DNA of 64,000 nucleotides from Motilibacter aurantiacus (lineage in GTDB: Bacteria > Actinomycetota > Actinomycetes > Motilibacterales > Motilibacteraceae). The notes under the pieces are model-generated. The model ran no database searches. It saw only the letters and a program-made list of their open reading frames with translations, and had not been told where the DNA came from. Below are positions 5,786-56,785 of the stretch, piece after piece (within the stretch, counting starts at the first letter, position 1; every line of letters starts with the position of its first letter). The stretch covers positions 329,506-393,505 of the forward strand of contig NZ_JAANNO010000002.1 of NCBI RefSeq assembly GCF_011250645.1, given 5' to 3'. The translations under genes and the position numbers were made by a program.

Positions 5786-7216
5786 CTACGACGTCACCAG
5801 GACCCGGTCCACCAGCATGCGCGCGGGGAAGGTGGTCCCCCCGTCCGGCGGGCCCGCCCACTCGCCGCCCACGGCGAGGTTGAGGACGAGGTAGAACGGC
5901 GAGTCGAACGGCCAGTCCTGCCCCGGCCGCTGGTCCACGGCTGCAGCGGTGAAGTACGGGCGGCCGTCGACGCTGAAGGTGATGGCCCCCGGCTGGACGT
6001 CGGCGGCGTAGACGTGCCATCCCTCGCTGAGCGGGGACCCGGTGTCGCGGCCGAGCCCGAGGCTGCTCACCGGCTGGTCGCGCCAGCCGAGCGGGTCCTG
6101 GTCGTCGCCGAGCCCGTGCACGTGCGCGTAGACCGTCGAGGGCTCCTTGCCGACGACCTCCATCACGTCGTACTCGCCGCTGCGCGGCCAGTCCACCTGG
6201 GCGCGGTCGGCTCCCACCGCCCAGAACGCGGCCCAGAGCCCCGCGCCGGCCGGTGTCGAGATGCGTGCCTCGACGCGGCCGTAGGTGAAGCTGAACGTGC
6301 CCTCGGTGCTGAGCTTGCCCGAGGTGTAGTCGGCGCTGCCGCCGTCGAAGAGGAACGGCTCCCGGCGCGCGGTGATCGCGAGCGCCCCGTCGCCGTCGAG
6401 CGCGCTGTTCGACGGGTCGTCGGTGTAGGCCTGCAGCTCGCCGGTGTCGGTGGGCGTCTGCGTCGCGCGGCGCCACGGCCCGGTCGGCTCGGCGCCGGCG
6501 GGGCCGTCGAACTGCTCGTCGAGCAGGGTGCGCGCCCCGGTCGTCGGCCCCATCCCGATCACCGACAGGGCGCTGGCCACCGGCTGCCCCGCGACAGCGG
6601 TGAAGGAGACGCGCAGCTCCGGCCCGTCCACGTCGACCATGCCGGTCACGTGCAGGGCGCGGGTGCCGTCCGGGGACTGCACCGCCGGGTCGAAGCCCTC
6701 GGCGAGGACGCGGTCTCCGACGCGTACGTCGAAGACGCGGTCGCCGGGACTGCCGGGTGTGAAGTCCGCGAGCATGAGGTCCACGGCGTAGCGCCCCGGC
6801 ACCGGGACGGTGATCGACCAGTCGGTGACGCCTTCGCGGTAGTGCTGGTAGAGCTCCGGGTTGGCGGTGCCGTCGACCGTCGCGGTCACCTGCTTCTCGA
6901 CGCCGCCGCGCAGCCCGGACGAGGGCTCCCAGCGCCCGCCGGCCGCATCGACGAGGGCGCGGCTGGCGGCGGTCGACCGGCTGACGAAGCCGGTCGGGTC
7001 GGTGTCGGCCGGCCGGGACGACGCCCACCACGCCGCCCCGCCGACGACGAGGGCGAGCGCCACGAGCACGGCGAGCAGCGCGCCCCCGCGCCGGCGCGGC
7101 GCCCAGTGCGCGCCGCGACGGGGCGGGTCACCGGCGGGGGCGTCCGGCGTCCCGGGCACGGCCGCGCCCGTGGCGGGGCCGGCGGCGGGCAGGGAGGAGG
7201 TGCCGGCCGCCCTCAC
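5786..7216 (-). CDS. membrane-anchored GH16 glycoside hydrolase with malectin-like domain
   Basis: A 476-residue protein starting at GTG 7216, whose GTGA overlaps the stop of the upstream GT2. It has a short cytoplasmic Pro/Ala tail, one anchor at about residues 40-62 ('LLAVLVALALVVGGAAWW'), a malectin-like beta domain (about 85-210, 'YAVDLMLADFTPG') and a C-terminal GH16 domain (about 230-476). The GH16 catalytic ExDxxE is present as 'SGEYDVMEVVG' near residue 345, with 'WAAFWAVG' before it and 'YLVLNLAVGGEW' after it, so the enzyme should be active on a beta-glucan-type or galactan-type polymer outside the membrane. Its paralogue at 8389-10173 is about half identical by eye. A role in trimming or release of the local polymer is inferred. 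Confidence 0.9.
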   Translation of the reverse strand: MRAAGTSSLPAAGPATGAAVPGTPDAPAGDPPRRGAHWAPRRRGGALLAVLVALALVVGGAAWWASSRPADTDPTGFVSRSTAASRALVDAAGGRWEPSSGLRGGVEKQVTATVDGTANPELYQHYREGVTDWSITVPVPGRYAVDLMLADFTPGSPGDRVFDVRVGDRVLAEGFDPAVQSPDGTRALHVTGMVDVDGPELRVSFTAVAGQPVASALSVIGMGPTTGARTLLDEQFDGPAGAEPTGPWRRATQTPTDTGELQAYTDDPSNSALDGDGALAITARREPFLFDGGSADYTSGKLSTEGTFSFTYGRVEARISTPAGAGLWAAFWAVGADRAQVDWPRSGEYDVMEVVGKEPSTVYAHVHGLGDDQDPLGWRDQPVSSLGLGRDTGSPLSEGWHVYAADVQPGAITFSVDGRPYFTAAAVDQRPGQDWPFDSPFYLVLNLAVGGEWAGPPDGGTTFPARMLVDRVLVTS

Positions 7217-8388: not shown

Positions 8389-10173
8389 GTGACCCCGGTT
8401 CTCGTCCGGCGCGCGATCGCTCTCGCCGCCCTGCCCGCCCTGGCCGCCCTGCTCCCCTCCGCGCCCGCCGCCGCCGTCGTGCCGGCCGGTGCCGTGGAGG
8501 CCGAGGCGCTCTCCCTGCCCGCCGCGAGCGGCACGACGTACGCCGACACCACGGCGTCCGGCGGCCGCGAGCTCTTCCTCTGGTCGCCGGACGCCGCGAC
8601 CGGGACCGTCCCGACCACGATGCGGGCCGCCGCCCTGCTGCTGCGCGCCCGCGGCGACCAGTGCCAGGGCGCCCCGCAGGCCGAGGTCACCGTGGACGGC
8701 AAGCTCGTCTCGACTGTCACGGTGAGCGCGGCGGGCTCCTGGGCGACGTACCGGCTGCCCGGCTCCTGGGAGGCGGGCGCCCACAGCGTCGCCGTCCGCT
8801 ACGTCAACGACGTGCGCACCGCGGCGTGCGACCGCAACCTGCACCTGGACTCGCTCTCCTTCGAGGCCGCCCCCGGGGCCGTGCCGGTGCCCGCCGCCGC
8901 GCCCGCTCCCGCCCCCGTCCCCACCGCCCCCGCGGCCCCGACGGCCGCGGGCAGTTGGACGCTGCGCCAGACCACCGGCACGACCCCGATCACCGACGTG
9001 ACCGGAGCGGTGTGGGCGCCGGCGACCGGGCTCGTCGGCGGCTCGCAGGTCCCGGTGTGGGGCGGCATCGCCGGCTCCGCGAGCGAGGCGCTGTACAGGT
9101 CCGCCCGCCAGGGCGCCACGTCGTGGACGGTCGACGTCCCGGCCGCGGCGCGCTACGCCGTGGACCTGCTCCTCTCCGACGCGACCGGCGCCAAGCCCGG
9201 CGCCCGCGTCTTCGACGTCACCGCGGCCGACGGCAACGGCACGCCCGTCCCGATCGCCACCGGCGTCGACATCGTGGCGACCGCGCGGGGCTGGTGGGCG
9301 TACCACGTCACCGGCGTCGTGCCCGTCACCAGCGGCAAGCTCACCCTGCGCTTCGTGGCGCGCAAGGGCCAGACCCTCGTCAACGGGCTGTCCGTCACCA
9401 CCGCCGGGCCGCTCTCGTCGGCAGGCCCGGTCTTCACCGACGAGTTCACCGGGCCCGCGGGCTCCGCCCCGGCTGCGGTCTGGGGGCGCCGGGTCGGCAG
9501 CGGCCCGTGGGGCGGTGGCGAGCTGCAGGCGTACACCGACTCCCGGTCCAACAGCTACCTGGACGGCAACGGCCGGCTGGTCATCACGGCCCGCAAGGAG
9601 CGCTGGGCCGACAGGTACGGCGCGCAGGACTACACCTCCGCCCGTCTGGAGACCAAGGGCCGGCAGACGTTCACGTACGGCCGGGTCGAGGCGCGCATGC
9701 AGGTGCCGGCGGGAAAGGGGCTGTGGCCGGCGTTCTGGAGCCTCGGCGCCGACATCGACTCCGTCGACTGGCCGCGGTCGGGCGAGCTCGACGTCATGGA
9801 GTACCTCGGCAGCCAGCCCACCACGGTCTTCGGCCACCTGCACGGCCTCGGCGACGCGAGCGACAAGCTCGGCTGGCTGAGCCAGCGGGTGTCCGACGTC
9901 GGGCTCGGCTACGACACCGGCGTCCCGCTCGCGAACGGCATGCACACGTACGCGATGGACGTCACACCGAACTACGTCACCTTCAGCGTCGACGGCCGCG
10001 AATACTTCACGGCGACCCGGGCCGACATGCGCTCCGGCCAGCAGTGGCCGGTCGGGAAGCCGTACTACCTGATCCTCAACCTCGCGGTCGGGGGGGACTG
10101 GGGCGGCGCGCCCGACGCGTCGACGGCCTTCCCGGCCTCGCTCGTCGTCGACCGGGTGACGATCACCGGGTGA
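8389..10173 (+). CDS. secreted GH16 glycoside hydrolase with N-terminal carbohydrate-binding and malectin-like domains
   Basis: A 594-residue protein from GTG 8389, giving a signal peptide ('AIALAALPALAALLPSAPAA') with an Ala-rich cleavage region. Order of domains: an N-terminal beta-sandwich (about 35-160) resembling CBM35/CBM60-type modules, an Ala/Pro linker (about 163-190), a malectin-like domain (about 195-345) and a GH16 domain (about 360-594). The catalytic ExDxxE is 'SGELDVMEYLG' near residue 464. There is no membrane anchor, unlike the divergent paralogue, so this one should be released or bind the polymer through its CBM. No good ribosome binding site precedes the GTG, so the exact start is uncertain. 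A strong terminator follows. Confidence 0.9.
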   Translation: MTPVLVRRAIALAALPALAALLPSAPAAAVVPAGAVEAEALSLPAASGTTYADTTASGGRELFLWSPDAATGTVPTTMRAAALLLRARGDQCQGAPQAEVTVDGKLVSTVTVSAAGSWATYRLPGSWEAGAHSVAVRYVNDVRTAACDRNLHLDSLSFEAAPGAVPVPAAAPAPAPVPTAPAAPTAAGSWTLRQTTGTTPITDVTGAVWAPATGLVGGSQVPVWGGIAGSASEALYRSARQGATSWTVDVPAAARYAVDLLLSDATGAKPGARVFDVTAADGNGTPVPIATGVDIVATARGWWAYHVTGVVPVTSGKLTLRFVARKGQTLVNGLSVTTAGPLSSAGPVFTDEFTGPAGSAPAAVWGRRVGSGPWGGGELQAYTDSRSNSYLDGNGRLVITARKERWADRYGAQDYTSARLETKGRQTFTYGRVEARMQVPAGKGLWPAFWSLGADIDSVDWPRSGELDVMEYLGSQPTTVFGHLHGLGDASDKLGWLSQRVSDVGLGYDTGVPLANGMHTYAMDVTPNYVTFSVDGREYFTATRADMRSGQQWPVGKPYYLILNLAVGGDWGGAPDASTAFPASLVVDRVTITG

Positions 10174-10186
10174 CCGGGCTCCCGGC

Positions 10187-10215
10187 CGGCCGCACCCCTA
10201 GCATGGGTGCGGCCG
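10187..10215 (+). terminator. hairpin terminator after GH16
   Basis: A perfect 11-bp stem with a 7-base loop (CTAGCAT) lies 13 bases after the GH16 stop codon; no T tract. Confidence 0.7.
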
Positions 10216-10296
10216 CCGGAGGCGCGGCACTCGGAGGGCGCTCCCTCCGGGCCGTCCCTTCGACGTGAGCGCGGGCGGCAGAACCAGGAAGCAGGA

Positions 10297-17864: not shown

Positions 17865-20468
17865 TCAGCGCAGCGGAGGCGCGCCCTTCGACTGGCCCTC
17901 GGGGGCGACGGCGTTGGCGACGAGGCCGAGCTCGGCCGGGGCCGCCGCCAGCTTGGTCGACGGCAGCACGCGCACGGTGTAGCCGAACGCGCCGGTCCGC
18001 TCGAGGGTGAGCTCTCCGTCGTAGCGGTGCCGGCCACCCTCGTACGCCTCGGCGTGGGTCAGCGGGAGCGCCGCGGTGTCGGCCAGCTCGTCGCCCTCGT
18101 CGACCCGGCCGTGGACCAGCTGCACCTCGACGTCTCCGGGCTGCAGGGCGCCGATCGAGACGAAGGCGCGCACGCGCAGCACCGAGCCGACCTCGGGGGC
18201 GTCCCCGACGCCCTCGGACTCGACGTGGTCGACGCGGACGCCGTCCCAGGACCCGCGGACGCTGCGCTTCCACTCGGCGAGCACGCGGGCGCCCTTGAGG
18301 TCCTCACCCAGCCCGCGGGCGGAGGTGGCTGCCGGCACGTAGAGCTGGTTGACGTAGTCCTGGACCTGCCGGCTCGCGAGCACCTTCGGCCCGAGCGACT
18401 GCAGGGTGTGCCGGACCATCGAGATCCAGCGCTGCGGGACCCCGTCGTGGCCGCGCTCGTAGAACTTCGCGGCGACCTGGGACTCGATGAGGTCGTAGAG
18501 CCCGGCGGCCTCGATGTCGTCGCGCCGGTTGGGGTCGCTGACGCCGTCGGCGGTCGGGATGGCCCAGCCGTTCTCGCCGTCGAACCACTCGTCCCACCAG
18601 CCGTCCAGGATCGAGAGGTTGAGGCCGCCGTTGAGCGCGGCCTTCATGCCCGACGTGCCGGAGGCCTCCAGCGGGCGGAGCGGGTTGTTGAGCCAGACGT
18701 CCGTGCCGGGCAGCAGGACCTGTGCCATGGCGATGTCGTAGTTCGGCAGGAAGACGATGCGGTGGCGCACCTCGGGGTCGTCGGTGAAGCGGACGAGCTC
18801 CTGGATGAGCCGCTTGCCGCCCTCGTCGGCCGGGTGGGCCTTGCCCGCGACGATGATCTGCACGGGGCGCTCGGGGTGCAGCAGCAGCGACTTGAGCCGG
18901 GCCGGGTCGCGCAGCATCAGCGTGAGGCGCTTGTACGACGGCACCCGGCGGGCGAAGCCGATGGTCAGCACCTCGGGGTCGAGGGCGTTGTCGATCCAGC
19001 CGAGCTCGGGCTCGCTCGCGCCCCGCTCCAGCCACGAGGCGCGCAGCCGGCGGCGCGCGTCGTCGACGAGCTTGCCGCGCAGCGTGCGGCGCACCTGCCA
19101 GAGATCGCCGTCCGAGAGCCGGGACAGGCCCTCCCAGTCGCGGGCACCGCCGGCCCGCTCGGCCGCGTCCTGCGCCTCCCGGGCGACCCACGTCGGGGCG
19201 TGGACGCCGTTGGTGACCGAGGTGATCGGCACCTCGGAGGGGTCGAAGCCCGGCCACAGCCCGGAGAACATCCCGCGGCTGACCACCCCGTGCAGCAGGC
19301 TGACGCCGTTGGCGCGCTGGCCCAGGCGCAGGCCCATGACGGCCATGTTGAAGACTCCGGGGTCGCCGCCCTCGTACGTCTCGGCTCCGAGGGCGAGGAT
19401 CTGGTCCAGCGCCTCGGGCGGGGCGAGCGGGCCGGAGAAGTGCTGCGCGACCAGGTCGCGGGGGAAGCGGTCGATACCCGCGGGCACCGGGGTGTGGGTG
19501 GTGAACACGGTGCCGGCGCGCACCGCCTCCAGCGCCTCCTCGAACGTCAGCCCGCTGTCGGCGACGAGCTCGCGGATGCGCTCGATGCCGAGGAAGCCGG
19601 CGTGGCCCTCGTTGGTGTGGAAGACCTCGGGCGCAGGCGCCCCGGTGACCCGGCTGTACGCGCGCAGCGCACGCACGCCGCCCATGCCGAGCAGCAGCTC
19701 CTGCAGCAGGCGGGTCTCGTTGCCCCCGCCGTAGAGCCGCTCGGTGACCGTCCGCTCGGAGGGCTCGTTGGTCTCGATGTCGGAGTCGAGCAGGAGCAGG
19801 GGCACGCGGCCGACCTGCGCGACCCAGACACGGGCGTGCAGCGCGCGCCCACCCGGCAGGTCCAGCGTGACGACGACGGGGGTCCCGTCGGGCTCGCGCA
19901 GCACCGAGATCGGCATGCCGTCGGGGTCGAGGACCGGGTAGTGCTCCTGCTGCCACCCGTCACCGGACAGCGCCTGGCGGAAGTAGCCCGAGCGGTACAG
20001 CAGGCCGACGCCGACGATCGGCACGCCGAGGTCGGAGGCGGACTTGAGGTGGTCACCGGCGAGGATCCCGAGCCCGCCGGAGTACTGCGGCAGCACGCTC
20101 GTGATGCCGTACTCGGGCGAGAAGTAGGCGATCGAGGCGGGGATCGCGCTGTCGCCGGGCTCCCCGGAGCCGAGCGACTGGTACCACCGGGCCCCGGTGA
20201 GGTACTCGTGCAGGTCGCCGACGGCGTCGTGGACACGGCGTACGAAACCCTCGTCCGCGGCGAGCTCGGCCAGCCGCTCGGGCGCGAGCGCGCCGAGCAG
20301 GGCCACCGGGTCGTGCCCGACGGCCTCCCAGGTGCCGGGGTCCGCGTCCCGGAACAGGTCCTGGGTCTCCGGGTGCCAGGACCACCGCAGGTTCATCGAC
20401 AGCTCGCCCAGGGGCGCGAGCGCCTCCGGAAGAACGGTGCGCACGGTGAAGCGGCGGATGGCTCTCAC
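17865..20468 (-). CDS. glgP: alpha-glucan phosphorylase GlgP
   Basis: An 867-residue protein of the actinobacterial/archaeal-type alpha-glucan phosphorylases: an N-terminal DUF3417 region ('GELSMNLRWSWHPETQDLF'), then 'YFSPEYGITSVLPQYSGGLG', 'VFHTNEGHAGFLGIERIREL' and the pyridoxal-phosphate site 'EASGTSGMKAALNGGLNLS', whose Lys (near residue 609) forms the Schiff base. It releases glucose-1-phosphate from alpha-1,4-glucan ends and can also act on maltodextrins made by the GlgE route. The start is GTG 20468 with GAGGG about seven bases upstream. It is transcribed away from glgE and towards glgX, with a strong shared terminator. Confidence 0.95.
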   Translation of the reverse strand: MRAIRRFTVRTVLPEALAPLGELSMNLRWSWHPETQDLFRDADPGTWEAVGHDPVALLGALAPERLAELAADEGFVRRVHDAVGDLHEYLTGARWYQSLGSGEPGDSAIPASIAYFSPEYGITSVLPQYSGGLGILAGDHLKSASDLGVPIVGVGLLYRSGYFRQALSGDGWQQEHYPVLDPDGMPISVLREPDGTPVVVTLDLPGGRALHARVWVAQVGRVPLLLLDSDIETNEPSERTVTERLYGGGNETRLLQELLLGMGGVRALRAYSRVTGAPAPEVFHTNEGHAGFLGIERIRELVADSGLTFEEALEAVRAGTVFTTHTPVPAGIDRFPRDLVAQHFSGPLAPPEALDQILALGAETYEGGDPGVFNMAVMGLRLGQRANGVSLLHGVVSRGMFSGLWPGFDPSEVPITSVTNGVHAPTWVAREAQDAAERAGGARDWEGLSRLSDGDLWQVRRTLRGKLVDDARRRLRASWLERGASEPELGWIDNALDPEVLTIGFARRVPSYKRLTLMLRDPARLKSLLLHPERPVQIIVAGKAHPADEGGKRLIQELVRFTDDPEVRHRIVFLPNYDIAMAQVLLPGTDVWLNNPLRPLEASGTSGMKAALNGGLNLSILDGWWDEWFDGENGWAIPTADGVSDPNRRDDIEAAGLYDLIESQVAAKFYERGHDGVPQRWISMVRHTLQSLGPKVLASRQVQDYVNQLYVPAATSARGLGEDLKGARVLAEWKRSVRGSWDGVRVDHVESEGVGDAPEVGSVLRVRAFVSIGALQPGDVEVQLVHGRVDEGDELADTAALPLTHAEAYEGGRHRYDGELTLERTGAFGYTVRVLPSTKLAAAPAELGLVANAVAPEGQSKGAPPLR

Positions 20469-20904
20469 GTGAATCCCTCACTCGTCGGGCGGCTACTGGC
20501 CGGCTGGCTGGCACTGCAACGGACGTCGACCCCGCGAGGCCATCCTTCCCACCTCTGCGTTGCCGGGCAAACCCGCTCCGCAGCCGTCGGCGCCTCGTTC
20601 TCCCGAACTGTCCGAAGGCAACGACTACGCCGAGTGTCAGGCCGATTACGCCCATCGTCTCGTACGGCCAAGGCGGCGGCGCACTCGCCCCTCGACCGGC
20701 CACCTGCGGCCCACGAAGCCCGACCCGACCCATCGGCCGCCGGCGGTCACCCGACCCACACCGAGCAGGCCGATGCCCGCTGACGCCGAATTCCCTGCTT
20801 CCAGGCGAGCGGTTCGTCCGATCGACGCCGGGAACCCGGCGCGCGCCGCCGCTGGGAGCAAGCGGGCGGGAGGCGACCGGCGCCTCCCGCCCTCCGGGGC
20901 CGCC
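20469..20904. other. intergenic region upstream of glgP
   Basis: This 436-base stretch must hold the glgP promoter. It contains the terminator at 20864-20892 and a compact inverted repeat at 20826-20841 (7-bp arms, two-base gap). The open frames here have no ribosome binding site and no coding bias. I could not identify a convincing -35/-10 pair for glgP. Confidence 0.4.
20864..20892 (-). terminator. strong terminator after the lasso-leader peptide gene
   Basis: A perfect 12-bp stem with a five-base loop begins 12 bases after the stop of the 44-residue peptide gene. On the minus strand it insulates glgP from transcription of the peptide and marks that gene as a separate transcript. Confidence 0.75.
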
Positions 20905-21039
20905 TCAGGAGAAGATCGAGAGCGGTGCCGTCACCGGGGTGCTGAGCGGGACGTCGGTCGCGGTGCCGGTGACCGACGCCCCCGTGAGCTCTTCCAGCCG
21001 ACCCCGCAGGGTCAGTGCGGGCGGGGTGTAGTCGCGCAT
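20905..21039 (-). CDS. orphan lasso-peptide-type RiPP precursor (44 aa)
   Basis: An ATG start at 21039 with AGGAG four bases upstream gives 44 residues. The first 20 (MRDYTPPALTLRGRLEELTG) match the actinobacterial lasso leader pattern Y-x2-P-x-L-x3-G-x5-T: Tyr4, Pro7, Leu9, Gly13 and Thr19. Family knowledge puts Thr at position -2, so the core begins at Ala21. Asp29 is then core residue 9, exactly where the ring-closing acidic residue is expected (ASVTGTATD ring). The remaining 15-residue tail is rich in Ser, Thr and Pro and ends in Ile-Phe-Ser. No RRE/PqqD-like, B2 protease or asparagine-synthetase-like cyclase is present in the window, so maturation would need enzymes encoded elsewhere. 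It has its own terminator and lies divergent from glgE. The leader match is direct; that it is matured into a lasso is inference. Confidence 0.7.
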   Translation of the reverse strand: MRDYTPPALTLRGRLEELTGASVTGTATDVPLSTPVTAPLSIFS

Positions 21040-21077
21040 GTAGCTCCTTCCATGGGGCTCCGCGTCGTGCAGTCGCA

Positions 21078-21156: not shown

Positions 21157-21424
21157 CACGGCAGCACTTAGCGCACAAATCGGAGCCGAAACAGGAATCT
21201 GCCGTACGCACCGGCTTCCATGGACCAGGCACGGGCAAACTCGCGCAGCGCAACTTCTCCGCTTGTTTACGGGCCGGACATCCTTCGACGCGCTGCTCGC
21301 CGAGGAACGGGCCCGTGCATGACGGTCCGTCGAGGCCCGAGCGACCGGCGGTGACGAGCAGGCCGTCATCCCGAGCGGCACCGGGGAGGTGATCCCTGGC
21401 CGCACCTGGGTAGGTTCGCCCTCG

Positions 21425-23407
21425 ATGACCGGACGCATCCCCATCAGCAACGTCCAACCCGTCGTGGCCTGCGGTAGGTACCCGGCCAAGGCGGTTGTGG
21501 GCGAGCGGTTCACCGTGTCGGCGACGGTGTTCCGTGAGGGGCACGACGCCGTGGCGGCCAACGTCGTCCTCCGGGACGCGGACGGCCGGAAAGGCCCGTG
21601 GACACCGATGCGCAAGCTCGGCCCGGGCGTGGACGTCTGGGAGGCAGAAGTCGTGCCGACCAGCGAGGGTCGCTGGAGCTACGCCATCGAGGCGTGGAGC
21701 GACCCCTACGAGACCTGGCATCACGATGCCGGCATCAAGGTGCCGGCAGGGCTCGACGTCGAGCTGATGCTGGAGGAAGGGGCACGGCTGCTCGAGCGAG
21801 CCGCGACGGTGCCCGGCCGCTCGGCCACCGGCAAGCGCGTCCTGGCCGACGCCGCCGCGGCCCTGCGGGACACCGGGCGGCCGGTGGAGGCGAGGTACGC
21901 CGCGGCGACCGCACCGGAGGTCGAGGCGACGCTGCAGGAGCTGCCGCTGCGCGACCTCGTGACGTCGACCGAGCGCTTCCCGCTCCAGGTCGACCGCGAG
22001 CGGGCGCTGTTCAGCAGCTGGTACGAGCTCTTCCCGCGCTCGGAGGGCGCGAGCATGGGCGAGGACGGCGGGCCGAAGCGCTCCGGGACGTTCCGCCAGG
22101 CGGCCGAGCGGCTGCCGGCGATCGCGGGCATGGGCTTCGACATCGTCTACCTGCCGCCCATCCACCCGATCGGCTTCACCGCGCGCAAGGGCCCGAACAA
22201 CACCCTGACCCCGGCCGAGGACGACCCGGGCGTCCCGTGGGCGATCGGCTCCCCCGCCGGCGGGCACGACGCCGTCCACCCGGACCTCGGCACGATCGAG
22301 GACTTCGACTTCTTCGTGGCCCGCACCCGCGAGCTCGGGATGGAGGTCGCGCTCGACCTCGCGCTGCAGGCCTCGCCCGACCACCCGTGGGTCACCGAGC
22401 ACCCGGAGTGGTTCACCACGCGCGCCGACGGCACCATCGCGTACGCGGAGAACCCGCCGAAGAAGTACCAGGACATCTACCCGATCAACTTCGACAACGA
22501 CCCGCAGGGGATCTACAACGAGGTGCTGCGGGTCGTGCGGCACTGGATCAGCCACGGGGTCCGGGTGTTCCGTGTCGACAACCCGCACACCAAGCCGGTG
22601 AACTTCTGGGAGTGGCTGCTCGGCGAGGTCCGCAAGACCGACCCGGACGTGCTCTTCCTGGCCGAGGCCTTCACCCGGCCGGCCATGATGCAGGAGCTGG
22701 CCAAGGTCGGCTTCCACCAGAGCTACACGTACTTCACCTGGCGGAACACCAAGCAGGAGCTCGTCGAGTACCTCACCGAGCTCACGACGCAGACCGCGCA
22801 CTTCTACCGGCCGAACTTCTGGCCCAACACGCCGGACATCCTGCACGCCTACCTGCAGTACGGCGGCCCGGCGGCGTTCAAGATCCGGGCCGTGCTGGCG
22901 GCGACCATGACCCCGTCCTACGGGATCTACTCCGGCTACGAGCTCTACGAGCACGTGGCGGTCCGGCCCGGCAGCGAGGAGTACCTCGACTCGGAGAAGT
23001 ACCAGTACCGCCCGCGGGACTGGGCGGCGGCCGAGCGCGACGGGCGGACGCTGACGCCCTACCTCACCCTGCTGAACCGGCTCCGGCGCGAGCACGTGGC
23101 GCTGCAGCGGCTGCGCGGCCTGCGCTTCCACGAGACCGACAGCGACCACATCCTCGCCTACAGCAAGGTCGAGAAGGCCGCGGACGGCTCCGAGGACGTC
23201 GTGCTGGTCGTGGTCAACCTCGACCCGCACTCCGTCCGCGAGGACACCGTCCACCTGGACATGCCCGAGCTCGGCTTCGGCTGGGACGACCACTTCGCCG
23301 TCCGTGACGAGATCACCGGCGAGACGTTCTGGTGGGGCCAGCACAACTACGTCCGGCTCGACCCCTATCGCGAGCCGGCGCACATCCTGACGGTCCGGAG
23401 GGTCTGA
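21425..23407 (+). CDS. glgE: alpha-1,4-glucan:maltose-1-phosphate maltosyltransferase GlgE
   Basis: A 660-residue protein with the GlgE opening '[20 protein letters not shown]', an N-terminal beta domain and helical S domain, and a GH13_3 barrel. Key segments: '[20 protein letters not shown]', '[20 protein letters not shown]', nucleophile Asp in '[15 protein letters not shown]' near residue 384, Glu in '[13 protein letters not shown]' near 413, and '[11 protein letters not shown]'. It transfers maltosyl units from maltose-1-phosphate to growing alpha-glucan and is the committed step of the TreS-Pep2-GlgE route. ATG 21425 is taken as the start because it gives the family N terminus; GTG 21389 is possible. 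It is followed four bases later by treS. Confidence 0.96.
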
Positions 23408-49648: not shown

Positions 49649-50521
49649 TCATCGATCGTTCGCCAGCGGGCCCGGAGCCCACAGCCCGGAGGCCAGGCCG
49701 CGGACGTACGCGACGTCGGCTCGGGTGAGGTCGCGCCGCCCCCGCGCCGCGCGTACCGTCGCCCCCACGAGCTTGCGCGCGGCGATGTAGCCGAGCAGCG
49801 CGGGGGGCAGCCCGCGCTTGCGCCACAGCCGGCCCTGCCCGCGCCCGTAGCCGAGCATCTTCTCGATGAACGCGCGGTCCGGCTCGTCCCGCGGCTCGTC
49901 CTGCAGCACGACGAGGGCGGGGTCGTAGGCGATGCGCCAGCCCAGCTCGATGCCGTGCATGACGACGTCGGTCTCCTCCCCCGACCGCCACGGCCCGGCG
50001 GAGCCGGCTCCGAGCATCGGGTCGAAGCCGCCGGCCGCGTCGACCAGCGCCCGACGCAGGAACAGGGTGCTCGAGATCCCCGTGCGGTAGAAGTTCCAGC
50101 GCGTGACGTCGCACGCGTCGGGAGCCCAGCGGAGCATGGAGCTGCGCCCGTCGGCCGTGAGCTGGCGCCCGGAGACGCCGCCCAGCTCGGGCTCCTGGCG
50201 CATCCGGCGCAGGGCCTGCCCGAGGGTCTGCGGCGGATACCAGCAGTCGTCATCAGGGAACGCCACCACGTCACCGACGGCGTGGGCGAGACCGGCGTTG
50301 CGCCCGATCGACAGGCCACGGGGCGAGGTGACGCCGACGCGGCGGAACGTCCCCTGCCACGCGTCGAGCTCGGCCAGCGCCGCCGTGTCGGGCGTCTGGT
50401 CCACCAGCACGAGCTCGACCTCGGCGGCCGCGTCGGACGCCTCCACGCTCGCGAGCAGCCGGCGGAGCTTGTCGGGTCTCCCGATGGTGCTGACGACGAG
50501 GGACAGGCCGATGTCGCTCAC
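49649..50521 (-). CDS. GT2-family glycosyltransferase
   Basis: A 290-residue GT-A protein: 'LSLVVSTIGRPDKLRRLLAS', 'ELVLVDQTPDTAALAELDAW', 'SPRGLSIGRNAGLAHAVGDV', metal-site 'VVAFPDDDCWYPPQTLGQAL', 'STLFLRRALVDAAGGFDPML' and catalytic-base region 'GPWRSGEETDVVMHGIELGW'. Typical of O-antigen and capsule GT2 enzymes. GTG 50521 overlaps the upstream gene's stop (GTGA). It is followed closely by the Wzy-like gene. Sugar specificity not predictable. Confidence 0.88.
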   Translation of the reverse strand: MSDIGLSLVVSTIGRPDKLRRLLASVEASDAAAEVELVLVDQTPDTAALAELDAWQGTFRRVGVTSPRGLSIGRNAGLAHAVGDVVAFPDDDCWYPPQTLGQALRRMRQEPELGGVSGRQLTADGRSSMLRWAPDACDVTRWNFYRTGISSTLFLRRALVDAAGGFDPMLGAGSAGPWRSGEETDVVMHGIELGWRIAYDPALVVLQDEPRDEPDRAFIEKMLGYGRGQGRLWRKRGLPPALLGYIAARKLVGATVRAARGRRDLTRADVAYVRGLASGLWAPGPLANDR

Positions 50522-52008
50522 CCGCGTGCGGTCCCCGGTACGGCGGGCTCCTCGACGGGAGCAGGAGCGGAGACGACGACGCCCTCGACCGCGAGCCCGG
50601 CCGAGCGCAGCTCCGACAGGCCCCGGTGCAGCAGGTCGACGGGCGTCCGTCCGACCGTCGCCACGACCGCGACGACCGGTGCCGAGCCCGCCATGCGGTT
50701 GACCACCGCGGAGTCGCAGATGGGCGGCGCGTCCACCACGACCCGCCATCCGGCCGCGGCGAAGCGGCTGAGCAGGTCGGGGCTGCACACGGCGTCCTCC
50801 GCGCGCTCGACCTGCCGGGCGGACCTGCTGCCGGCGGGCAGCAGGTAGAGCCCCTCGACCGCCGTGGGCTGCACGAGGCCGTCGATCGAGCGGGCCGACT
50901 CCTCACCCTTGAGGTCGGCCAGGCCGTACGCGGCGTCGGGCACCGCGAACCAGCGCGCCACCCGGCGCTCGTAGGCGTCCGCCGCGCAGAGCAGCACCGT
51001 CGGCGTCTCGCGCGCGAGCGCTGTCGCGACGTTCACGGCCACGACGCTGCCCGCGGCCGCGTCGTCCACGCTCTGGAGCACCACGGGGCGCCCCGGCTCC
51101 TTGTTGGCCAGCAGACGGCCGGCCACGAGGCGCGCGGCCGACTCGACCGGGTCCTGGCTGGCGCGGCCCGGCAGGGCCGACACCCACGCACCGGACACGC
51201 CGGGGACCTGCGGGCCGAGCGGCCGCTCGCCGAGCCGGACGACGTCGTCCACATCCTCCACACGCCAGGTGCGCCGCCGGAAGGCGATGACCGCAAGGGC
51301 GAGCAGGCAGCCGAGCAGCGCCCCCAGGGCGCCGCCGCGGGGGAGGGACGGGCTGCGCTCGCCGACGTTGTCGGCCGGCTGGTCGAGGGCGACGGCGGTG
51401 GGCCCGGCCGCCTGCACCCGGGCCTGCCCGAGGCTGTTGAGGAGTGCGTCGTACTGGCCCTGCAGGCCGGCGCGGACGAGCTCCTCCTCCTGCGTGCGCG
51501 GGGTCGCGGGAAGCTGCGACAGCTGACTCGTGATTTGCGAAAGCTCGTTCTGCAACGACTCCACGCGGCCGGAGGCCTCGGCGCCGAGCCGCTCCGTGTA
51601 GGCCGCGAGCAGCGCCTCTGCCCCGCGTACCGCTTCCTGCTCGGAGTCGGTGCTGACGGACACCTGCACGACGTTGCTGAGCCCCACCTGCGCGGCGTCG
51701 AGTGCGGCACCGGGCGCCTGGGCCTGCACCGCGCGGGCCACCTCGGGGCCGGTGAGGTAGAGCAGCTCCGTCGCGACCTGCCGGTCTCCCGTCGACGACG
51801 GGGCCAGCAGGTCACCGGGCGCGAGATCGATGCGGACCGTGGAGACGTACGTCGACGGGCGGGCCTGCTGGACGGCGGCGCCGGCGACGGCGCCGAGCAC
51901 GACCAGCCCCACCAGCCACGGCCAGCTGCGCAGCACCCGTCGGTCGAGCAACGGACGCTGAACGACGCTCTCGCCGTGGTCGTCCCACCGGTTGGCGCTC
52001 GCGGCCAT
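50518..52008 (-). CDS. Wzz/BY-kinase-like chain-length protein with degenerate ATPase domain
   Basis: A 496-residue protein. A first helix near residues 28-47, a periplasmic coiled region ('GRVESLQNELSQITSQLSQL') and a second helix near 228-246 ('LGALLGCLLALAVIAFRRR') form the Wzz unit. The C-terminal domain has the ParA/CpsD fold, but the Walker A motif expected as GEGKST reads 'SVDDAAAGSVVAVNVATALA' without Lys, Walker A' is altered ('VLLCAADAYERR'), while Walker B survives as 'WRVVVDAPPICDSAVVN'. A C-terminal Tyr cluster is absent. It should set chain length but is unlikely to be an active tyrosine kinase. It overlaps the GT2 downstream by GTGA. Confidence 0.85.
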   Translation of the reverse strand: MAASANRWDDHGESVVQRPLLDRRVLRSWPWLVGLVVLGAVAGAAVQQARPSTYVSTVRIDLAPGDLLAPSSTGDRQVATELLYLTGPEVARAVQAQAPGAALDAAQVGLSNVVQVSVSTDSEQEAVRGAEALLAAYTERLGAEASGRVESLQNELSQITSQLSQLPATPRTQEEELVRAGLQGQYDALLNSLGQARVQAAGPTAVALDQPADNVGERSPSLPRGGALGALLGCLLALAVIAFRRRTWRVEDVDDVVRLGERPLGPQVPGVSGAWVSALPGRASQDPVESAARLVAGRLLANKEPGRPVVLQSVDDAAAGSVVAVNVATALARETPTVLLCAADAYERRVARWFAVPDAAYGLADLKGEESARSIDGLVQPTAVEGLYLLPAGSRSARQVERAEDAVCSPDLLSRFAAAGWRVVVDAPPICDSAVVNRMAGSAPVVAVVATVGRTPVDLLHRGLSELRSAGLAVEGVVVSAPAPVEEPAVPGTARG

Positions 52009-52041
52009 GGAACTCCTTCTCGATCGTCAGCGGTCAGCGAA

Positions 52042-53217
52042 TCACACGGCGTCGGGCTGCGGGCGCAGTTGCGCGCCCCGGTCCCTGCCGGCGATCCGTG
52101 CGCTCAGGTCGGCAAGGGACTCCAGCGAGCCCGCCAGTGAGAAGCGCTCCTCCATCCGGCGCCTGCCCGCCGCGCCCTCGGCGGCGGCCAGCCCCGGGTC
52201 GAGCAGCCGTGCGGCGACCGCGTCGGCGATCCGGTGGGGCAGCAGGCTCGGCTCCTCGAGCGGGACCACCACCCCCGCGGCCGCCGGGCCCTCCCCCACG
52301 ACCTCCCGCATGCCGCAGGCCGACGTGGTCACCAGGCTGCGTCCGGTGGCGCACGTCTCGAGCGCGGCGAGCGCCATGCCCTCCCAACGGGAGGGGCTGA
52401 CGACCACGTCCGCGGCCGCGAGCCAACGCCGTACGCCTGCCCTGTCCTGGCGGACGGGGACCAGCGTGACGCCCGGCAGCTGCGCGGCCGCCGCAGCCAG
52501 CCGCTCGCGCTCCGGGCCGTCCCCGACGAGGTAGAGCCGGGCCTGCGGGACGGCGGCCTGCACGCGCGGCCAGGCCGACAGCAGGAGGTCCTGCCCCTTC
52601 TGCACCGCCAGCCGGGCCACCACCACCACCATCGGCGCCCCGGACGGCACGCCGAGCTCGCCGCGAGCCGCAGCGCGCTCGGCCGATGAGGCCAGGGGCC
52701 AGGCCTCGGTGTCGACGGCGTTGGGCACGACCACGAGCCGGCCGGGGTCCAACCCCGAGCCGATGCCCAGGGCACGCTCCTGCTCGCTCGTGCACACGGT
52801 GATGTCGGCCCACCGGCCGGCGAGCCGCTCCCAGCGCAGGGCGGCCGCGTTCAGCGGTCCGGACCCCGCGAGGAAGGACCACGCGTGCGGCTGGAAAAGC
52901 GTGGGCACCCGGCCACGGAGCACCGTGCGCCCGACCATCCCCGCCTTGCTGCTGTGCAGGTGCACGAGGTCCGGCCGCACCCGCGCCACCAGGGCGCGCA
53001 GCGTGGTCGCCTCCTGCAGCATGCTGCGGCCCGGCGCCCGCGCCGCCTCCCAGGGCACGTGCCGCGCTCCTGCGGTGACGACGCCGTCGCGGAGCGCCCC
53101 GCCCAGCGGAGACGCCACGACCACGTCCCAATCGCGCTCGACCTGGTCGCCGGCCACGACACGGACCCAGTTCGCCACGCCCTCGTCGACGGGCTGGCTC
53201 ACGTGCAGCACCCTCAC
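52042..53217 (-). CDS. GT4-family glycosyltransferase
   Basis: A 391-residue GT-B protein: 'RVLHVSQPVDEGVANWVRVV', 'RPDLVHLHSSKAGMVGRTVL', 'VPTLFQPHAWSFLAGSGPLN', 'ADITVCTSEQERALGIGSGL', 'LVVVPNAVDTEAWPLASSAE', 'MVVVVARLAVQKGQDLLLSA', 'ARLYLVGDGPERERLAAAAA' and 'ADVVVSPSRWEGMALAALET', whose Glu pair is the EX7E nucleotide-sugar site. A close match in layout to capsular and O-antigen GT4 enzymes. The start is GTG 53217, 37 bases after the sugar transferase stop. Likely adds the second sugar after the initiating transferase. Confidence 0.9.
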   Translation of the reverse strand: MRVLHVSQPVDEGVANWVRVVAGDQVERDWDVVVASPLGGALRDGVVTAGARHVPWEAARAPGRSMLQEATTLRALVARVRPDLVHLHSSKAGMVGRTVLRGRVPTLFQPHAWSFLAGSGPLNAAALRWERLAGRWADITVCTSEQERALGIGSGLDPGRLVVVPNAVDTEAWPLASSAERAAARGELGVPSGAPMVVVVARLAVQKGQDLLLSAWPRVQAAVPQARLYLVGDGPERERLAAAAAQLPGVTLVPVRQDRAGVRRWLAAADVVVSPSRWEGMALAALETCATGRSLVTTSACGMREVVGEGPAAAGVVVPLEEPSLLPHRIADAVAARLLDPGLAAAEGAAGRRRMEERFSLAGSLESLADLSARIAGRDRGAQLRPQPDAV

Positions 53218-53254
53218 GCTGCGGCCCCGACGCAGGTGCGGCCGAGCGGCCGGG

Positions 53255-54727
53255 TCACGAGCCCCTCGTGTAGACGAGCTTGCCGAAGGTGCGGATCATG
53301 ACCTTGATGTCCAGCCACAACGACCAGTTCTCGATGTAGTAGTTGTCGAATCGGGCACGGCTGCCCAGGGAGGACTCGTCGCCACCGCGGAAGCCGCTCA
53401 CCTGCGCCAGCCCGGTGAGCCCCATCGGCGCGCGGTGCCGGTAGCCGTAGTGCGGGATCTGCTTGGACCAGCGCTCCACGAAGAACGAGCGCTCGGGCCG
53501 CGGGCCGACGATGGTCATCTGCCCACGCAAGACGTTGAACAACTGCGGTAGTTCGTCCAGGGAGGCCGAGCGCAGGAACCGGCCGACCTTCGTCACGCGC
53601 TGGTCCATGGCGTGCGACCACATCTGCTCGGACTCCACCGCGCTGCTCGGGCGCAGCGTCCGGAACTTGAGCATGTTGAACGGACGGCCGTCCCGGCCGA
53701 TGCGCTGCTGCTTGAACAGGACCTGGGGCCCGGTCATCCGGACCGCGACCGCGCACGCAAGGAGCACGGGGGACAGGACCACGATCCCGAGCGCGCTGAG
53801 CACGACGTCCTCCATCCGTTTGACCGCCGCCCGCAGCCCCCGGTGCCGGTGCCGCTGCAACCGCACCAGCGGTATGGGCCCCATGTGATCGGTGATCCCG
53901 CGTGCCCCGAGGACCTCGAAGAGCCGCGGCACGATGAACACGTCGCGCTGCTGGCCCTCTCGGGAACGGAACGAGTCCACCACCGCCCGGTCGGGGGTGG
54001 CGCCGAAGGCGACGACGATCACCTGCACATCGGTGGTCCGCAGCACGGACGCGATGTCACCCGTGCCGCCCAGGCGAGGGCCGAGGCTCGTCTCGCGGAA
54101 CAGCTCCGGCCCGTCCTCGAGATGGCCGATGACGCGCAGCCCGTAGGCCGGATGGCTCCGGATCATGGCGGCCACCTCCTCGGCCACCTCACCCCCACCC
54201 AGGACGACCGTGTGCCTGCTGGTGATGCCGCTGGAGCGCAACCGACGCAGGACCGCGTAGCCGAGGGCGCGCGCGGCATGGAGCGGCACGAGCGCCGCCA
54301 CCCCGGCCACGAGGTAGGGACGGACGTCGGCCGGCTCGCCCAGGACGTTGACGGCCGCCCCCACGAACCCGACCGCGAGCAGCAACCGCCCGCTGAGCAC
54401 GGGAACGTCGTCCAGCGTCGACAGCGCAAGACGGGACCGGTCCAGCCCGGCCAGGGCGAGCAGCACCGTCACCAGCGTGGCGGTCGCGGCCAGGTGCCCC
54501 AGCTGGTCGGGGAAGACGGCCGCGGTGGACAGGACCGCACAGAAGTCGAGCGTTGCGAGGGCACAGGCGGTGAGCACGGGATGGGCCCGCCGCAGCCGGA
54601 GCGGTGGGGACGGAGGCGGATGCGGCGAACTGCCCACGCGGAGGGGCGGACCGGTGACCGCCGGCGCAGGACTTGCCGAAGCCACACCCAACCCGCCCGC
54701 ATCGCTGTCGGTCGAGAGTGACCGCAT
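53255..54727 (-). CDS. polyprenyl-phosphate sugar-1-phosphate transferase (initiating, WbaP/ExoY type)
   Basis: A 490-residue protein with four N-terminal hydrophobic segments, a CoA-binding-like Rossmann module ('HTVVLGGGEVAEEVAAMIRS', 'YGLRVIGHLEDG') and a C-terminal bacterial sugar transferase domain after a re-entrant helix. The catalytic core is complete: 'QVLFKQQRIGRDGRPFNMLK', 'FRTLRPSS', 'SASLDELPQLFNVLRGQMTI', 'VGPRPERSFFVERW' and 'GLTGLAQVSGFRGG'. It loads the first sugar-1-phosphate on the lipid carrier. ATG 54727 has GGGGAG four to five bases upstream; ATG 54763 is possible. First gene of the minus-strand operon ending at 46459. Confidence 0.93.
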   Translation of the reverse strand: MRSLSTDSDAGGLGVASASPAPAVTGPPLRVGSSPHPPPSPPLRLRRAHPVLTACALATLDFCAVLSTAAVFPDQLGHLAATATLVTVLLALAGLDRSRLALSTLDDVPVLSGRLLLAVGFVGAAVNVLGEPADVRPYLVAGVAALVPLHAARALGYAVLRRLRSSGITSRHTVVLGGGEVAEEVAAMIRSHPAYGLRVIGHLEDGPELFRETSLGPRLGGTGDIASVLRTTDVQVIVVAFGATPDRAVVDSFRSREGQQRDVFIVPRLFEVLGARGITDHMGPIPLVRLQRHRHRGLRAAVKRMEDVVLSALGIVVLSPVLLACAVAVRMTGPQVLFKQQRIGRDGRPFNMLKFRTLRPSSAVESEQMWSHAMDQRVTKVGRFLRSASLDELPQLFNVLRGQMTIVGPRPERSFFVERWSKQIPHYGYRHRAPMGLTGLAQVSGFRGGDESSLGSRARFDNYYIENWSLWLDIKVMIRTFGKLVYTRGS

Positions 54728-54852
54728 CACACTCCCCTGTTCGCTCAGGTCGTGATTGGGCACAACCTACGCACTCCAGCCCGTCTAGGGAATCGCCTTC
54801 GTGTGAAGTTGGCGCTACGTAACGGCAAAGAGCTGGGTTCCGCTGTAACGCG

Positions 54853-54866
54853 GCGGTCATGACCGC
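54853..54866. promoter_or_regulatory. 14-bp perfect palindrome GCGGTCATGACCGC
   Basis: A self-complementary 14-mer about 126 bases upstream of the sugar transferase start and about 197 upstream of the mapped plus-strand -35. A candidate operator serving one or both operons. Confidence 0.4.
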
Positions 54867-55062
54867 GGAGGCCGAGGCCCGATCCGGACGGGAGCGGGCT
54901 GGCCGTGGCAGCCGGCAGGCGCGCGTACCCCTCGTCGACGCGAGGCCGAGCGCAACACCGCCAGCGAGAATCCCAACGTTGGCAGGCGTTCTCACCAGCT
55001 ACGACACTCCGTGACTTGCACATCACTCTGCGCTCGACCCACAGGAACCGGACGTCGAGGCA

Positions 55063-55091
55063 TTTACAGACACGGGGCGCATTCGTAGTCT
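55063..55091 (+). promoter_or_regulatory. sigma70-type promoter of the heptose operon
   Basis: TTTACA at 55063-55068 and TAGTCT at 55086-55091 with the ideal 17-base spacer; transcription would begin near 55098, leaving a leader of about 78 bases before the TTG start. Confidence 0.5.
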
Positions 55092-55175
55092 GAGCCCACT
55101 CCTCGTGGCCGGAGCGGCGGCGTGGCCCCCGACTCGAGTGCGTCTTCCGACCTCGCAAAGCCCGGAGGAGCCGCA

Positions 55176-56189
55176 TTGCGCATCAACACCAAGGCACCGC
55201 TTCGCGTGAGCTTCGCCGGCGGCGGCACCGACGTGTCCCCGTTCCCCGAGTCCGAGGGCGGCGCGGTGCTGTCCGCGACCATCGACCGCTACGCGTACGG
55301 CAGCCTCTCCCCACGCGGCGACGACCAGGTCTGCATCGAGTCCGTGGACTACGGGCTGTCGGTGGACTTCGGGATCAAGGACAGCGTGGCCTTCGACGGC
55401 AAGCTCGACCTCGCGAAAGCGGCGGTGCGCAAGCTCTGCGGCGACGACGACTGCGGCTTCGACCTCTTCCTGCACAGCAACGCGCCGCCCGGGTCCGGGC
55501 TCGGCTCGTCCTCCACGATGATGGTCGCTCTCATCGGCCTGCTCGTGGAGCGCTCACGGGCCCGCCTCTCCGACTACGAGATCGCCCAGCTCGCCTACTC
55601 CCTCGAGCGGGAGGACCTCGGCATCAAGGGCGGCCTGCAGGACCAGTACGCGGCGGTGTTCGGCGGGTTCAACTACATCGAGTTCTTCGGCGACCACGTG
55701 GTGGTGAACCCACTGCGGGTGAAGGAGAGCACCGTCAACGAGCTCGAGCACAACCTGCTCCTCTGCTATACGGGCATCACCCGTGAGGGCAAGCACATCA
55801 TCGACGACCAGACCGGGCGCGTCACCGCCGGCGAGGCGAGGACCGTCGACGCGCTGCGCGCCCAGAAGCGGCTGGCGCTGGAGATGAAGCGGGCGCTGCT
55901 GCGCGACGAGCTCGACAGCTTCGGGTCCCTGCTCGGCTCCGCCTGGGAGCACAAGAAGCAGATGTCACCGCGGATCAGCACCCCCTTCATCGACGAGGCC
56001 TACGACGCGGCCCGACGCAACGGGGCGCTGGGTGGGAAGGTCACCGGGGCCGGCGGGGGCGGCTACCTGCTGCTCTACTGCGACTTCCGGCGCAAGCACC
56101 GCGTCGCCGAGGCGCTCCTCGCACTGGGCGCGACCGTCACCGAGTTCTCCTTCGAGTCCCGAGGCCTCATGACATGGAGGGTCCCGTGA
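55176..56189 (+). CDS. hddA: D-glycero-alpha-D-manno-heptose-7-phosphate kinase HddA
   Basis: A 337-residue GHMP kinase. The family opening 'RINTKAPLRVSFAGGGTDVS' is followed by the Gly-rich ATP loop 'APPGSGLGSSSTMMVALIGL', 'EREDLGIKGGLQDQYAAVFG' and motif 3 'NGALGGKVTGAGGGGYLLLY'. It phosphorylates heptose-7-phosphate at C1 alpha, on the route to GDP-heptose. TTG 55176 was chosen because GGAGGAG lies six bases upstream and it gives exactly the family N terminus; GTG 55122 is the alternative. The end overlaps gmhA by GTGA. HddA is a marker of GDP-activated heptose in S-layer and capsule glycans. Confidence 0.88.
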   Translation: MRINTKAPLRVSFAGGGTDVSPFPESEGGAVLSATIDRYAYGSLSPRGDDQVCIESVDYGLSVDFGIKDSVAFDGKLDLAKAAVRKLCGDDDCGFDLFLHSNAPPGSGLGSSSTMMVALIGLLVERSRARLSDYEIAQLAYSLEREDLGIKGGLQDQYAAVFGGFNYIEFFGDHVVVNPLRVKESTVNELEHNLLLCYTGITREGKHIIDDQTGRVTAGEARTVDALRAQKRLALEMKRALLRDELDSFGSLLGSAWEHKKQMSPRISTPFIDEAYDAARRNGALGGKVTGAGGGGYLLLYCDFRRKHRVAEALLALGATVTEFSFESRGLMTWRVP

Positions 56190-56785
56190 GCCAGGACCGG
56201 TGGGCCACGACCCTGCAGGCGAGGATCGACCAGAGCCTGCGCACGACCGAGCAACTGCTCGAACCTCACGTCATGGAGACCGTCGCGCGCATCTGCGACC
56301 TGCTGCTGACGTGCCTGCGCAACGACGGCAAGGCGATCTTCTTCGGCAACGGCGGCTCCGCGACCGAGGCCCAGCACCTGTCGGCCGAGCTGCTCGGCCG
56401 CTTCTACCTCGACCGGCCGGCGCTGCCCTCCGTCAGCCTCGCGGACAACACAGCGGCCATGACCGCCATCGGGAACGACTACAGCTATCCCGACGTCTTC
56501 TCCCGACAGATCGTCGGGATCGGGCGGCCCGGTGACGTCGCCTTCGGGCTCACGACGAGCGGCGACAGCGTCAACGTCGTCCGGGCCCTGGAGGCCGCCA
56601 AGGGCAACGGGCTGCTGACCGTGGCCTTCACCGGCGCACGGGGCGGCCGCGCCGCGCAGATCGCGCACGAAGCCTTCCGCGCCCCCTCCGAGGACACCCC
56701 CAGGGTGCAGGAGGCGCACCTGCTCGTCGGGCACACCATGTGCGAGATCGTCGAGGCAGAGCTGTTCGGCGCGGCCGCCGGGTGA
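56186..56785 (+). CDS. gmhA: sedoheptulose-7-phosphate isomerase GmhA
   Basis: A 199-residue SIS-domain protein: 'AIFFGNGGSATEAQHLSAEL', 'SLADNTAAMTAIGNDYSYPD', 'VAFGLTTSGDSVNVVRALEA' (phosphate-binding SxS) and 'VQEAHLLVGHTMCEIVEAEL', whose His/Glu pair is catalytic in this family. It converts sedoheptulose-7-phosphate to D-glycero-D-manno-heptose-7-phosphate. GTG 56186 has GGAGG five bases upstream and overlaps the hddA stop; its own stop overlaps the next gene (GTGA). Works directly upstream of HddA. Confidence 0.93.
   Translation: MSQDRWATTLQARIDQSLRTTEQLLEPHVMETVARICDLLLTCLRNDGKAIFFGNGGSATEAQHLSAELLGRFYLDRPALPSVSLADNTAAMTAIGNDYSYPDVFSRQIVGIGRPGDVAFGLTTSGDSVNVVRALEAAKGNGLLTVAFTGARGGRAAQIAHEAFRAPSEDTPRVQEAHLLVGHTMCEIVEAELFGAAAG

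What the first reader, a model, noticed from the sequence alone, without database searches (positions are those of the whole stretch)
20864..21039. Orphan lasso-peptide-type precursor inside the alpha-glucan gene block
Seen in sequence: a 44-codon gene with AGGAG four bases before ATG, and a leader matching Y-x2-P-x-L-x3-G-x5-T in both residues and spacing. Placing Thr19 at -2 makes Asp29 core residue 9, the ring-closing position of lasso peptides, with Ala as residue 1. It has its own 12-bp-stem terminator. Family knowledge: precursor, RRE, protease and cyclase genes normally cluster, yet none of the latter is in the 64 kb. Inference: the precursor is matured in trans, or the leader family has a role beyond lasso peptides, possibly connected with glucan or trehalose metabolism through its divergent neighbour glgE.
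Basis: partly seen in the sequence, partly recalled or inferred. Interest (0 to 1): 0.78.

Follow-up and report, generated by a model that had tools for sequence, protein, structure and literature searches.

The report
Lasso-peptide precursor far from its maturases
A tiny gene among sugar-storage genes of a soil bacterium very probably encodes the raw material of a knotted "lasso" peptide, while the enzymes that could tie the knot are encoded far away beside two sister genes.

Summary
The 44-codon gene is real (minus strand, 21039 to 20905), with the leader motif, RBS, Asp9 and hairpin described; the full pattern occurs once in the window and in 0 of 400 Markov simulations. The two genomes of its genus that could be searched hold seven copies. 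One is a syntenic orthologue in Motilibacter deserti. Two lie in tandem on contig C5 of the window's own genome beside a lasso-type maturation set: PqqD-type B1, transglutaminase-type B2, Asn-synthetase-type cyclase. That is the genome's only B2 over cut-off and only cyclase hit, at least about 198 kb away. Three other family members lack cyclase and precursor. Best reading: a third lasso precursor, matured in trans. Expression, modification and product are unobserved. Against it: the gene changes faster than its in-cluster sisters, and its leader scores below the curated cut-off. The glucan link is positional only. Seven literature searches of an open-access library, seen mostly as listings, showed no displaced lasso precursor. 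New variant of a known kind.

The parts
20905..21039 (-). 44-codon lasso-type precursor gene (ATG 21039, stop 20907-20905)
   Evidence: six further copies in two genomes; pattern not met by chance in 400 simulations
20980..21039 (-). leader, residues 1-20, with YxxPxL at -17 to -12 and Thr at -2
   Evidence: direct reading; alignment of seven copies; register as in PMC10368454 (passages); NF033521 15.2 bits, below cut-off 19
20908..20979 (-). predicted core, 24 residues, Ala1 and Asp9 as inferred ring-closing pair
   Evidence: Asp29, Pro31, Phe43 and Ser44 invariant in the seven copies; ring closure is inferred
21044..21048 (-). AGGAG ribosome-binding site, four bases before ATG
   Evidence: direct reading
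20864..20892 (-). hairpin, 12-bp stem and 5-nt loop, just after the stop codon
   Evidence: z -0.81, not unusually stable; no U-tract
17865..20468 (-). context: alpha-glucan phosphorylase gene (glgP), same strand, 436 bp downstream of the precursor
   Evidence: TIGR02094 756.2 bits, cut-off 191.7
21389..23407 (+). context: glgE-like GH13-type gene, divergent

Best explanation
The gene encodes a third lasso-peptide precursor of this genome, separated from its maturation cluster. Proposed steps: B1 (a PqqD-type RRE encoded on contig C5) binds the YxxPxL leader; B2 (a transglutaminase-like cysteine protease, C5) cuts after residue 20 (Thr at -2, Gly at -1); the compact Asn-synthetase-like cyclase (C5) activates Asp9 with ATP and joins it to the amino group of Ala1, giving a 9-residue ring with the 15-residue tail threaded (calculated monoisotopic mass 2313.21). 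Shown here: the gene, its paralogues beside a maturase set, the shared leader, the syntenic orthologue and co-occurrence with the cyclase. Inferred: expression, leader binding, cleavage, ring closure, threading and biological role.
For: Seven copies in the two searchable genomes of the genus share 13 invariant positions, among them Y4, P7, G13, T19 and D29. Two of the own-genome copies lie beside a PF00733 cyclase, a PF05402 B1 and a PF13471 B2; B2 passes the NCBIfam lasso B2 cut-off (37.5 against 33 bits), and B1's best solved relative is the lasso RRE TbiB1 (E 3e-12). One B2 over cut-off and one cyclase hit in the genome. The orthologue lies between the same genes in M. deserti, with no indel in the frame while the flanks are heavily gapped. 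Precursor and cyclase are both present in 2 and both absent in 3 of the 5 family genomes. A 40%-identical cyclase in an Acidimicrobiales MAG sits beside a precursor over the lasso-leader cut-off with Ala1, Asp9 and a Phe-Ser end. Literature: B1 guides B2 in paeninodin maturation (PMC5067487, passages); the actinobacterial FusB1 bound two non-cognate leaders about as well as its own (PMC13381572, passages).
Against: No transcript, modification or product seen. Leader below the NF033521 cut-off while four in-cluster copies reach it. The window gene differs more from its orthologue (dN 0.338, dS 0.865) than the two in-cluster pairs do (dN 0.097 and 0.225). B1 is below both lasso B1 cut-offs in NCBIfam (57 of 70 and 49.7 of 80 bits), and the cyclase scores 16.4 bits on the lasso cyclase model against a cut-off of 525. 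In-cluster cores begin with Gln or Arg, the window core with Ala, so the shared enzymes would have to accept different first residues. No sigma-70-like promoter found.
Confidence: 0.74

Rival explanations
1. Decaying duplicate: a precursor copy that left the cluster, is no longer expressed or matured, and is drifting.
For: dN 0.338 between the two species, against 0.097 and 0.225 for the in-cluster precursor pairs, 0.099 for the cyclase and 0.05 for the glgE-like gene; core dN/dS about 0.6; codon-position differences 15/10/20 are only mildly coding-like. No promoter-like site. The other displaced copy is present in only one of the two genomes.
Against: Frame open and the same length in both species, no indel in the frame, leader key residues, Thr19, Asp29 and the C-terminal Phe-Ser kept, RBS present in both.
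Confidence: 0.13
2. The peptide is matured by the C5 enzymes but the product is not a threaded lasso: the compact cyclase makes a simple or different ring.
For: The cyclase has 417 aa, Pfam finds no amidotransferase-like domain in it, and it scores far below the lasso cyclase cut-off.
Against: The B1 and B2 relatives are lasso ones, Asp9 is invariant in seven copies, and relatives of this cyclase lie beside lasso-leader genes in G501 and an Acidimicrobiales MAG.
Confidence: 0.07
3. The product acts unmodified or as a leader decoy that titrates B1 and so tunes maturation of the in-cluster precursors.
For: The leader is recognisably that of the cluster, and sequence alone does not show that the core is processed.
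Against: The core keeps Asp29, Pro31 and the Phe-Ser end in all seven copies, which a decoy would not need.
Confidence: 0.04
4. Chance open frame in GC-rich DNA.
For: Many spurious frames exist in this DNA; the leader is below the curated cut-off.
Against: 0 of 400 simulations had the full pattern; E 2.0e-11 to its orthologue and 1.6e-9 to an in-cluster paralogue.
Confidence: 0.01

Closest known systems
Actinobacterial lasso peptides with separate B1 and B2 (for example fusilassin, TbiB1/TfuB1)
   Same: YxxPxL leader with Thr at -2, acidic ring residue at 9, PqqD-type B1 whose best solved relatives are TbiB1 and TfuB1, transglutaminase-type B2
   Different: This precursor is not beside its maturases; the cyclase is short and far below the curated lasso cyclase cut-off
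Lasso clusters with several precursors
   Same: Divergent cores behind one leader type, sharing one maturase set, as described in PMC13381572 (passage); two precursors lie in the cluster here
   Different: Here a further copy is at least about 198 kb away and kept in synteny in a second species
Citrulassin (deiminase outside the cluster)
   Same: A lasso pathway whose parts are split over the genome (PMC12971885, passages)
   Different: There the displaced part is a tailoring enzyme and the precursor stays with the core enzymes; here the precursor is displaced
Prochlorosins and other RiPPs with dispersed precursors (recalled, no call)
   Same: One maturase set serving precursors at several loci
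   Different: Other enzyme chemistry (lanthipeptide); far more precursors

Membership tests
Lasso peptide precursor | [Y/W]xxPx[L/V/I/A/F/Y] RRE-binding leader motif | tested here: met
   Y4-x2-P7-x-L9; motif as given in PMC13381572 (passage)
Lasso peptide precursor | Thr (rarely Ile/Val) at leader position -2 | tested here: met
   Thr19, invariant in the seven copies; PMC10368454 (passages). The cleavage site itself is inferred
Lasso peptide precursor | Acidic residue closing a 7-9-residue ring | tested here: met
   Asp at core 9, invariant in seven copies; ring sizes 7-9 from PMC5067487 (passage)
Lasso peptide precursor | Curated leader model NF033521 over cut-off (a help to recognition, not a defining trait) | tested here: not met
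   15.2 bits against 19; four in-cluster copies reach it
Lasso peptide precursor | Maturases encoded in the same genome | tested here: met
   B1, B2, C on contig C5; not in the window
Lasso peptide precursor | Isopeptide-bonded, threaded product | not testable with these tools
   Needs mass spectrometry and structure
Lasso maturase set (C5) | B2 transglutaminase-like leader peptidase | tested here: met
   PF13471 over cut-off; NF033537 37.5 bits against 33
Lasso maturase set (C5) | Lasso-type B1 (RRE) | tested here: inconclusive
   PF05402 75.2 bits, over cut-off; best NCBIfam matches are two lasso B1 models, both below cut-off (57 of 70, 49.7 of 80); best solved relative TbiB1, E 3e-12
Lasso maturase set (C5) | Asn-synthetase-like lasso cyclase | tested here: inconclusive
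   PF00733 over cut-off; NF033535 16.4 bits against 525, and no solved lasso cyclase matched by sequence

The most novel reading that the evidence does not exclude
In this Motilibacter lineage lasso precursors form a dispersed gene family: one maturase set with a compact cyclase serves two in-cluster precursors plus precursors placed beside glucan-metabolism genes, so that a separate lasso peptide is made under the control of storage-carbon or osmolyte metabolism; a prochlorosin-like logic for lasso peptides.
Probability: 0.3. Interest if true: 0.68.

Novelty: new variant of a known kind. Interest (0 to 1): 0.5.

Why it matters
Lasso precursors are usually sought next to the cyclase, so displaced ones are easily missed (inference from how such mining is described in the papers seen). 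A displaced precursor kept in two species, with an identifiable maturase set in the same genome, gives a natural test of maturation in trans and suggests that its product is regulated apart from the cluster. It also points to a compact cyclase type that the curated lasso cyclase model does not recognise.

Tried and rejected
Structure prediction of the M. deserti cyclase (alignment of 3) gave mean pLDDT 45.3 and was not used; no fold search was run. A shared upstream element of the seven precursors was sought; the alignment had 7 invariant columns of 231 and no clear common block. DUF6065, encoded in both maturase clusters, was considered as a tailoring gene: it matched in 3 of 396 genomes of the phylum, own included; a second own-genome copy and the copies in the two other genomes showed no lasso genes nearby by eye or by leader pattern (no HMM scan); no solved relative at E up to 1; no paper in the library names it. 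The glucan link was tested at the second place: the own genome has the GH16 orthologue (82% identity) with a 140-bp gap to the next gene and no leader pattern there.

Rows dropped: two weak G001 matches (E 0.42 and 0.45, inside long frames) were not counted. In one search, 4 of 393 genomes of the class matched at E 0.001 or better: the two Motilibacter genomes strongly, two others at E 2.4e-4 and 5.8e-4, not followed; at most 18 candidates per genome were scored there. In one search, 3 of 396 genomes matched the cyclase, own included; at most 4 candidates per genome were scored. In one search sub-cut-off sites and one site at the cut-off in G501 away from its cyclases were not followed.

The species of the window's genome is shown by no tool. 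M. deserti E257 is the congener; M. aurantiacus for the window is a guess from its being described together with M. deserti (PMC8696123, passages).

Full report
What is there. On the minus strand, ATG 21039 to TGA 20905, is a 44-codon gene with AAGGAG four bases before ATG. Its leader reads Y-x2-P-x-L-x3-G-x5-T. With Thr at -2 this puts YxxPxL at -17 to -12, the register given for a set of lasso leaders in PMC10368454 (passages), Ala at core 1 and Asp at core 9. The full pattern occurs once in the window and in 0 of 400 first-order Markov simulations; the leader motif alone occurred 15 times in the 400. A 12-bp stem follows the stop codon but is not unusually stable for such DNA (z -0.81) and has no U-tract. 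NCBIfam's lasso leader model gives 15.2 bits, below its cut-off of 19.

Relatives. The tool holds two genomes of the genus, the window's own (G000) and one other (G001). The protein finds three copies in G000 and four in G001 at E 1.2e-5 or better (two further G001 rows at E above 0.4 were set aside), and the profile finds the same seven. G001 is Motilibacter deserti E257: its cyclase contig and a named public contig have the same length, 22,363 bases, and the cyclase at the same identity. One G001 copy lies between the same two glucan genes as in the window. Each genome has a tandem pair beside maturase genes. The fourth G001 copy lies between a GH15 glucodextranase and a GH16 gene; the matching place in G000 has a 140-bp gap with no leader pattern. 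In the alignment of the seven, 13 positions are invariant, including Y4, P7, G13, T19, D29, P31, F43 and S44. Core residue 1 is Ala in the three displaced copies and Gln or Arg in the four in-cluster ones. The family (and order) as held has five genomes; the three outside the genus have no precursor (E 0.01, E 0.001, lasso leader model) and no cyclase hit (E 1e-5), and the region between glgP and the glgE-like gene there shows no leader pattern in frames of 25 to 119 aa.

The maturases. Around the tandem pair on contig C5 of G000 are an Asn-synthetase-like protein (PF00733, E 1.9e-13), a PqqD-type protein (PF05402, E 5.2e-21), a B2 protease (PF13471, E 1.3e-8; NF033537 37.5 bits, cut-off 33) and a DUF6065 gene. 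B1's best solved relatives are the lasso RREs TbiB1 (E 3e-12) and TfuB1 (E 2.3e-7), but it is below both NCBIfam lasso B1 cut-offs. C5 has the genome's only PF13471 match over cut-off and its only cyclase match; B1-type proteins were not counted genome-wide. G001 has the same layout, with B2 cut by the contig end. The window gene is about 171 kb from the nearer end of C2 and the C5 set about 28 kb from the nearer end of C5, so they are at least about 198 kb apart; in G001 at least about 347 kb (lengths), if the assemblies are right.

The cyclase is unusual: 417 aa, no amidotransferase domain reported by Pfam, and 16.4 bits against a 525-bit cut-off for the lasso cyclase model NF033535. That canonical lasso cyclases are longer, with an amidotransferase-like N-terminal part, is recalled. 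Relatives matched in 3 of 396 genomes of the phylum at E 1e-20, own included. G501 has two; beside them I read, by eye, B1-like, ABC-transporter-like and kinase-like frames and two frames with the leader pattern, both over the NF033521 cut-off. An Acidimicrobiales MAG has a 40%-identical cyclase, cut by the contig end, beside a B1-like frame (by eye) and a precursor over the same cut-off (20.3 bits) whose core begins with Ala, has Asp9 and ends Phe-Ser. So this compact cyclase type lies in lasso-like clusters elsewhere.

Selection. Window gene against its orthologue: dN 0.338, dS 0.865, with 15, 10 and 20 differences at codon positions 1, 2 and 3. For comparison: in-cluster precursor pairs dN 0.097 and 0.225, cyclase 0.099, glgE-like gene 0.05. 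The frame has no indel while its flanks are heavily gapped. With one pair of 44 codons this favours a kept protein but does not exclude slow decay, and the higher dN counts for that rival.

Mechanism. Shown: gene, leader, paralogues beside one maturase set, synteny, co-occurrence. Inferred: B1 binds the leader, B2 removes it after residue 20, the cyclase joins Ala1 to Asp9, the 15-residue tail is threaded; calculated monoisotopic mass 2313.21. B1 guides B2 in paeninodin maturation (PMC5067487, passages), and the actinobacterial FusB1 bound two non-cognate precursors with similar efficiency to its own (PMC13381572, passages), which makes maturation in trans plausible.

Glucan link. Both places of displaced copies adjoin glucan-acting genes: glgP (TIGR02094 over cut-off), with treS, glgB and glgX also over cut-off nearby, and GH15 and GH16. 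Two places are too few to test, no common upstream element was found, and the name glgE was not confirmed by NCBIfam. I treat the link as a lead.

Novelty. Several precursors in one lasso cluster are known (PMC13381572, passage), some genomes show more than one lasA-like sequence (PMC7533575, passages), and a lasso tailoring enzyme outside the cluster is known (PMC12971885, passages). Unclustered lanthipeptide proteases are known (PMC8960859, listing only). Seven searches bearing on displaced precursors listed no report of a lasso precursor displaced from its maturases; I saw titles and abstract starts, and opened only the papers named. The library lacks most subscription journals, so this is weak evidence of absence.

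Noticed in passing
L011:7915-9168, L013:236-1489, L046, L048, L023:6271-7257: A compact (about 400 aa) Asn-synthetase-like cyclase type in lasso-like clusters, far below the NCBIfam lasso cyclase cut-off.
   Followed up: partly
L014, about 9318-9443 (G001:C253:100317-100442): A second displaced lasso-type precursor in M. deserti, between a GH15 glucodextranase and a GH16 gene; absent from the matching place of the window's genome.
   Followed up: partly
L011:9856-10827, L013:2191-3168, L064: DUF6065 (PF19541) gene in both maturase clusters and a second own-genome copy on C6 without lasso genes in view; function unknown.
   Followed up: partly
L047 (G534:C16:80971-82110): A compact cyclase relative with a TAG stop inside the match, and a lasso-leader-like site about 0.9 kb away below cut-off.
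   Followed up: no
window 5795-6724 and 9181-10182: Two GH16-type matches (36% and 40% identity to the M. deserti GH16 protein) upstream of the glucan block, the second with a TGA inside the match.
   Followed up: no
window 10191-10279: tRNA-Leu gene with anticodon GAG.
   Followed up: no
window about 50500-57400: Genes that look by eye like polysaccharide and heptose biosynthesis; the C5 lasso cluster also has a glycosyltransferase nearby.
   Followed up: no
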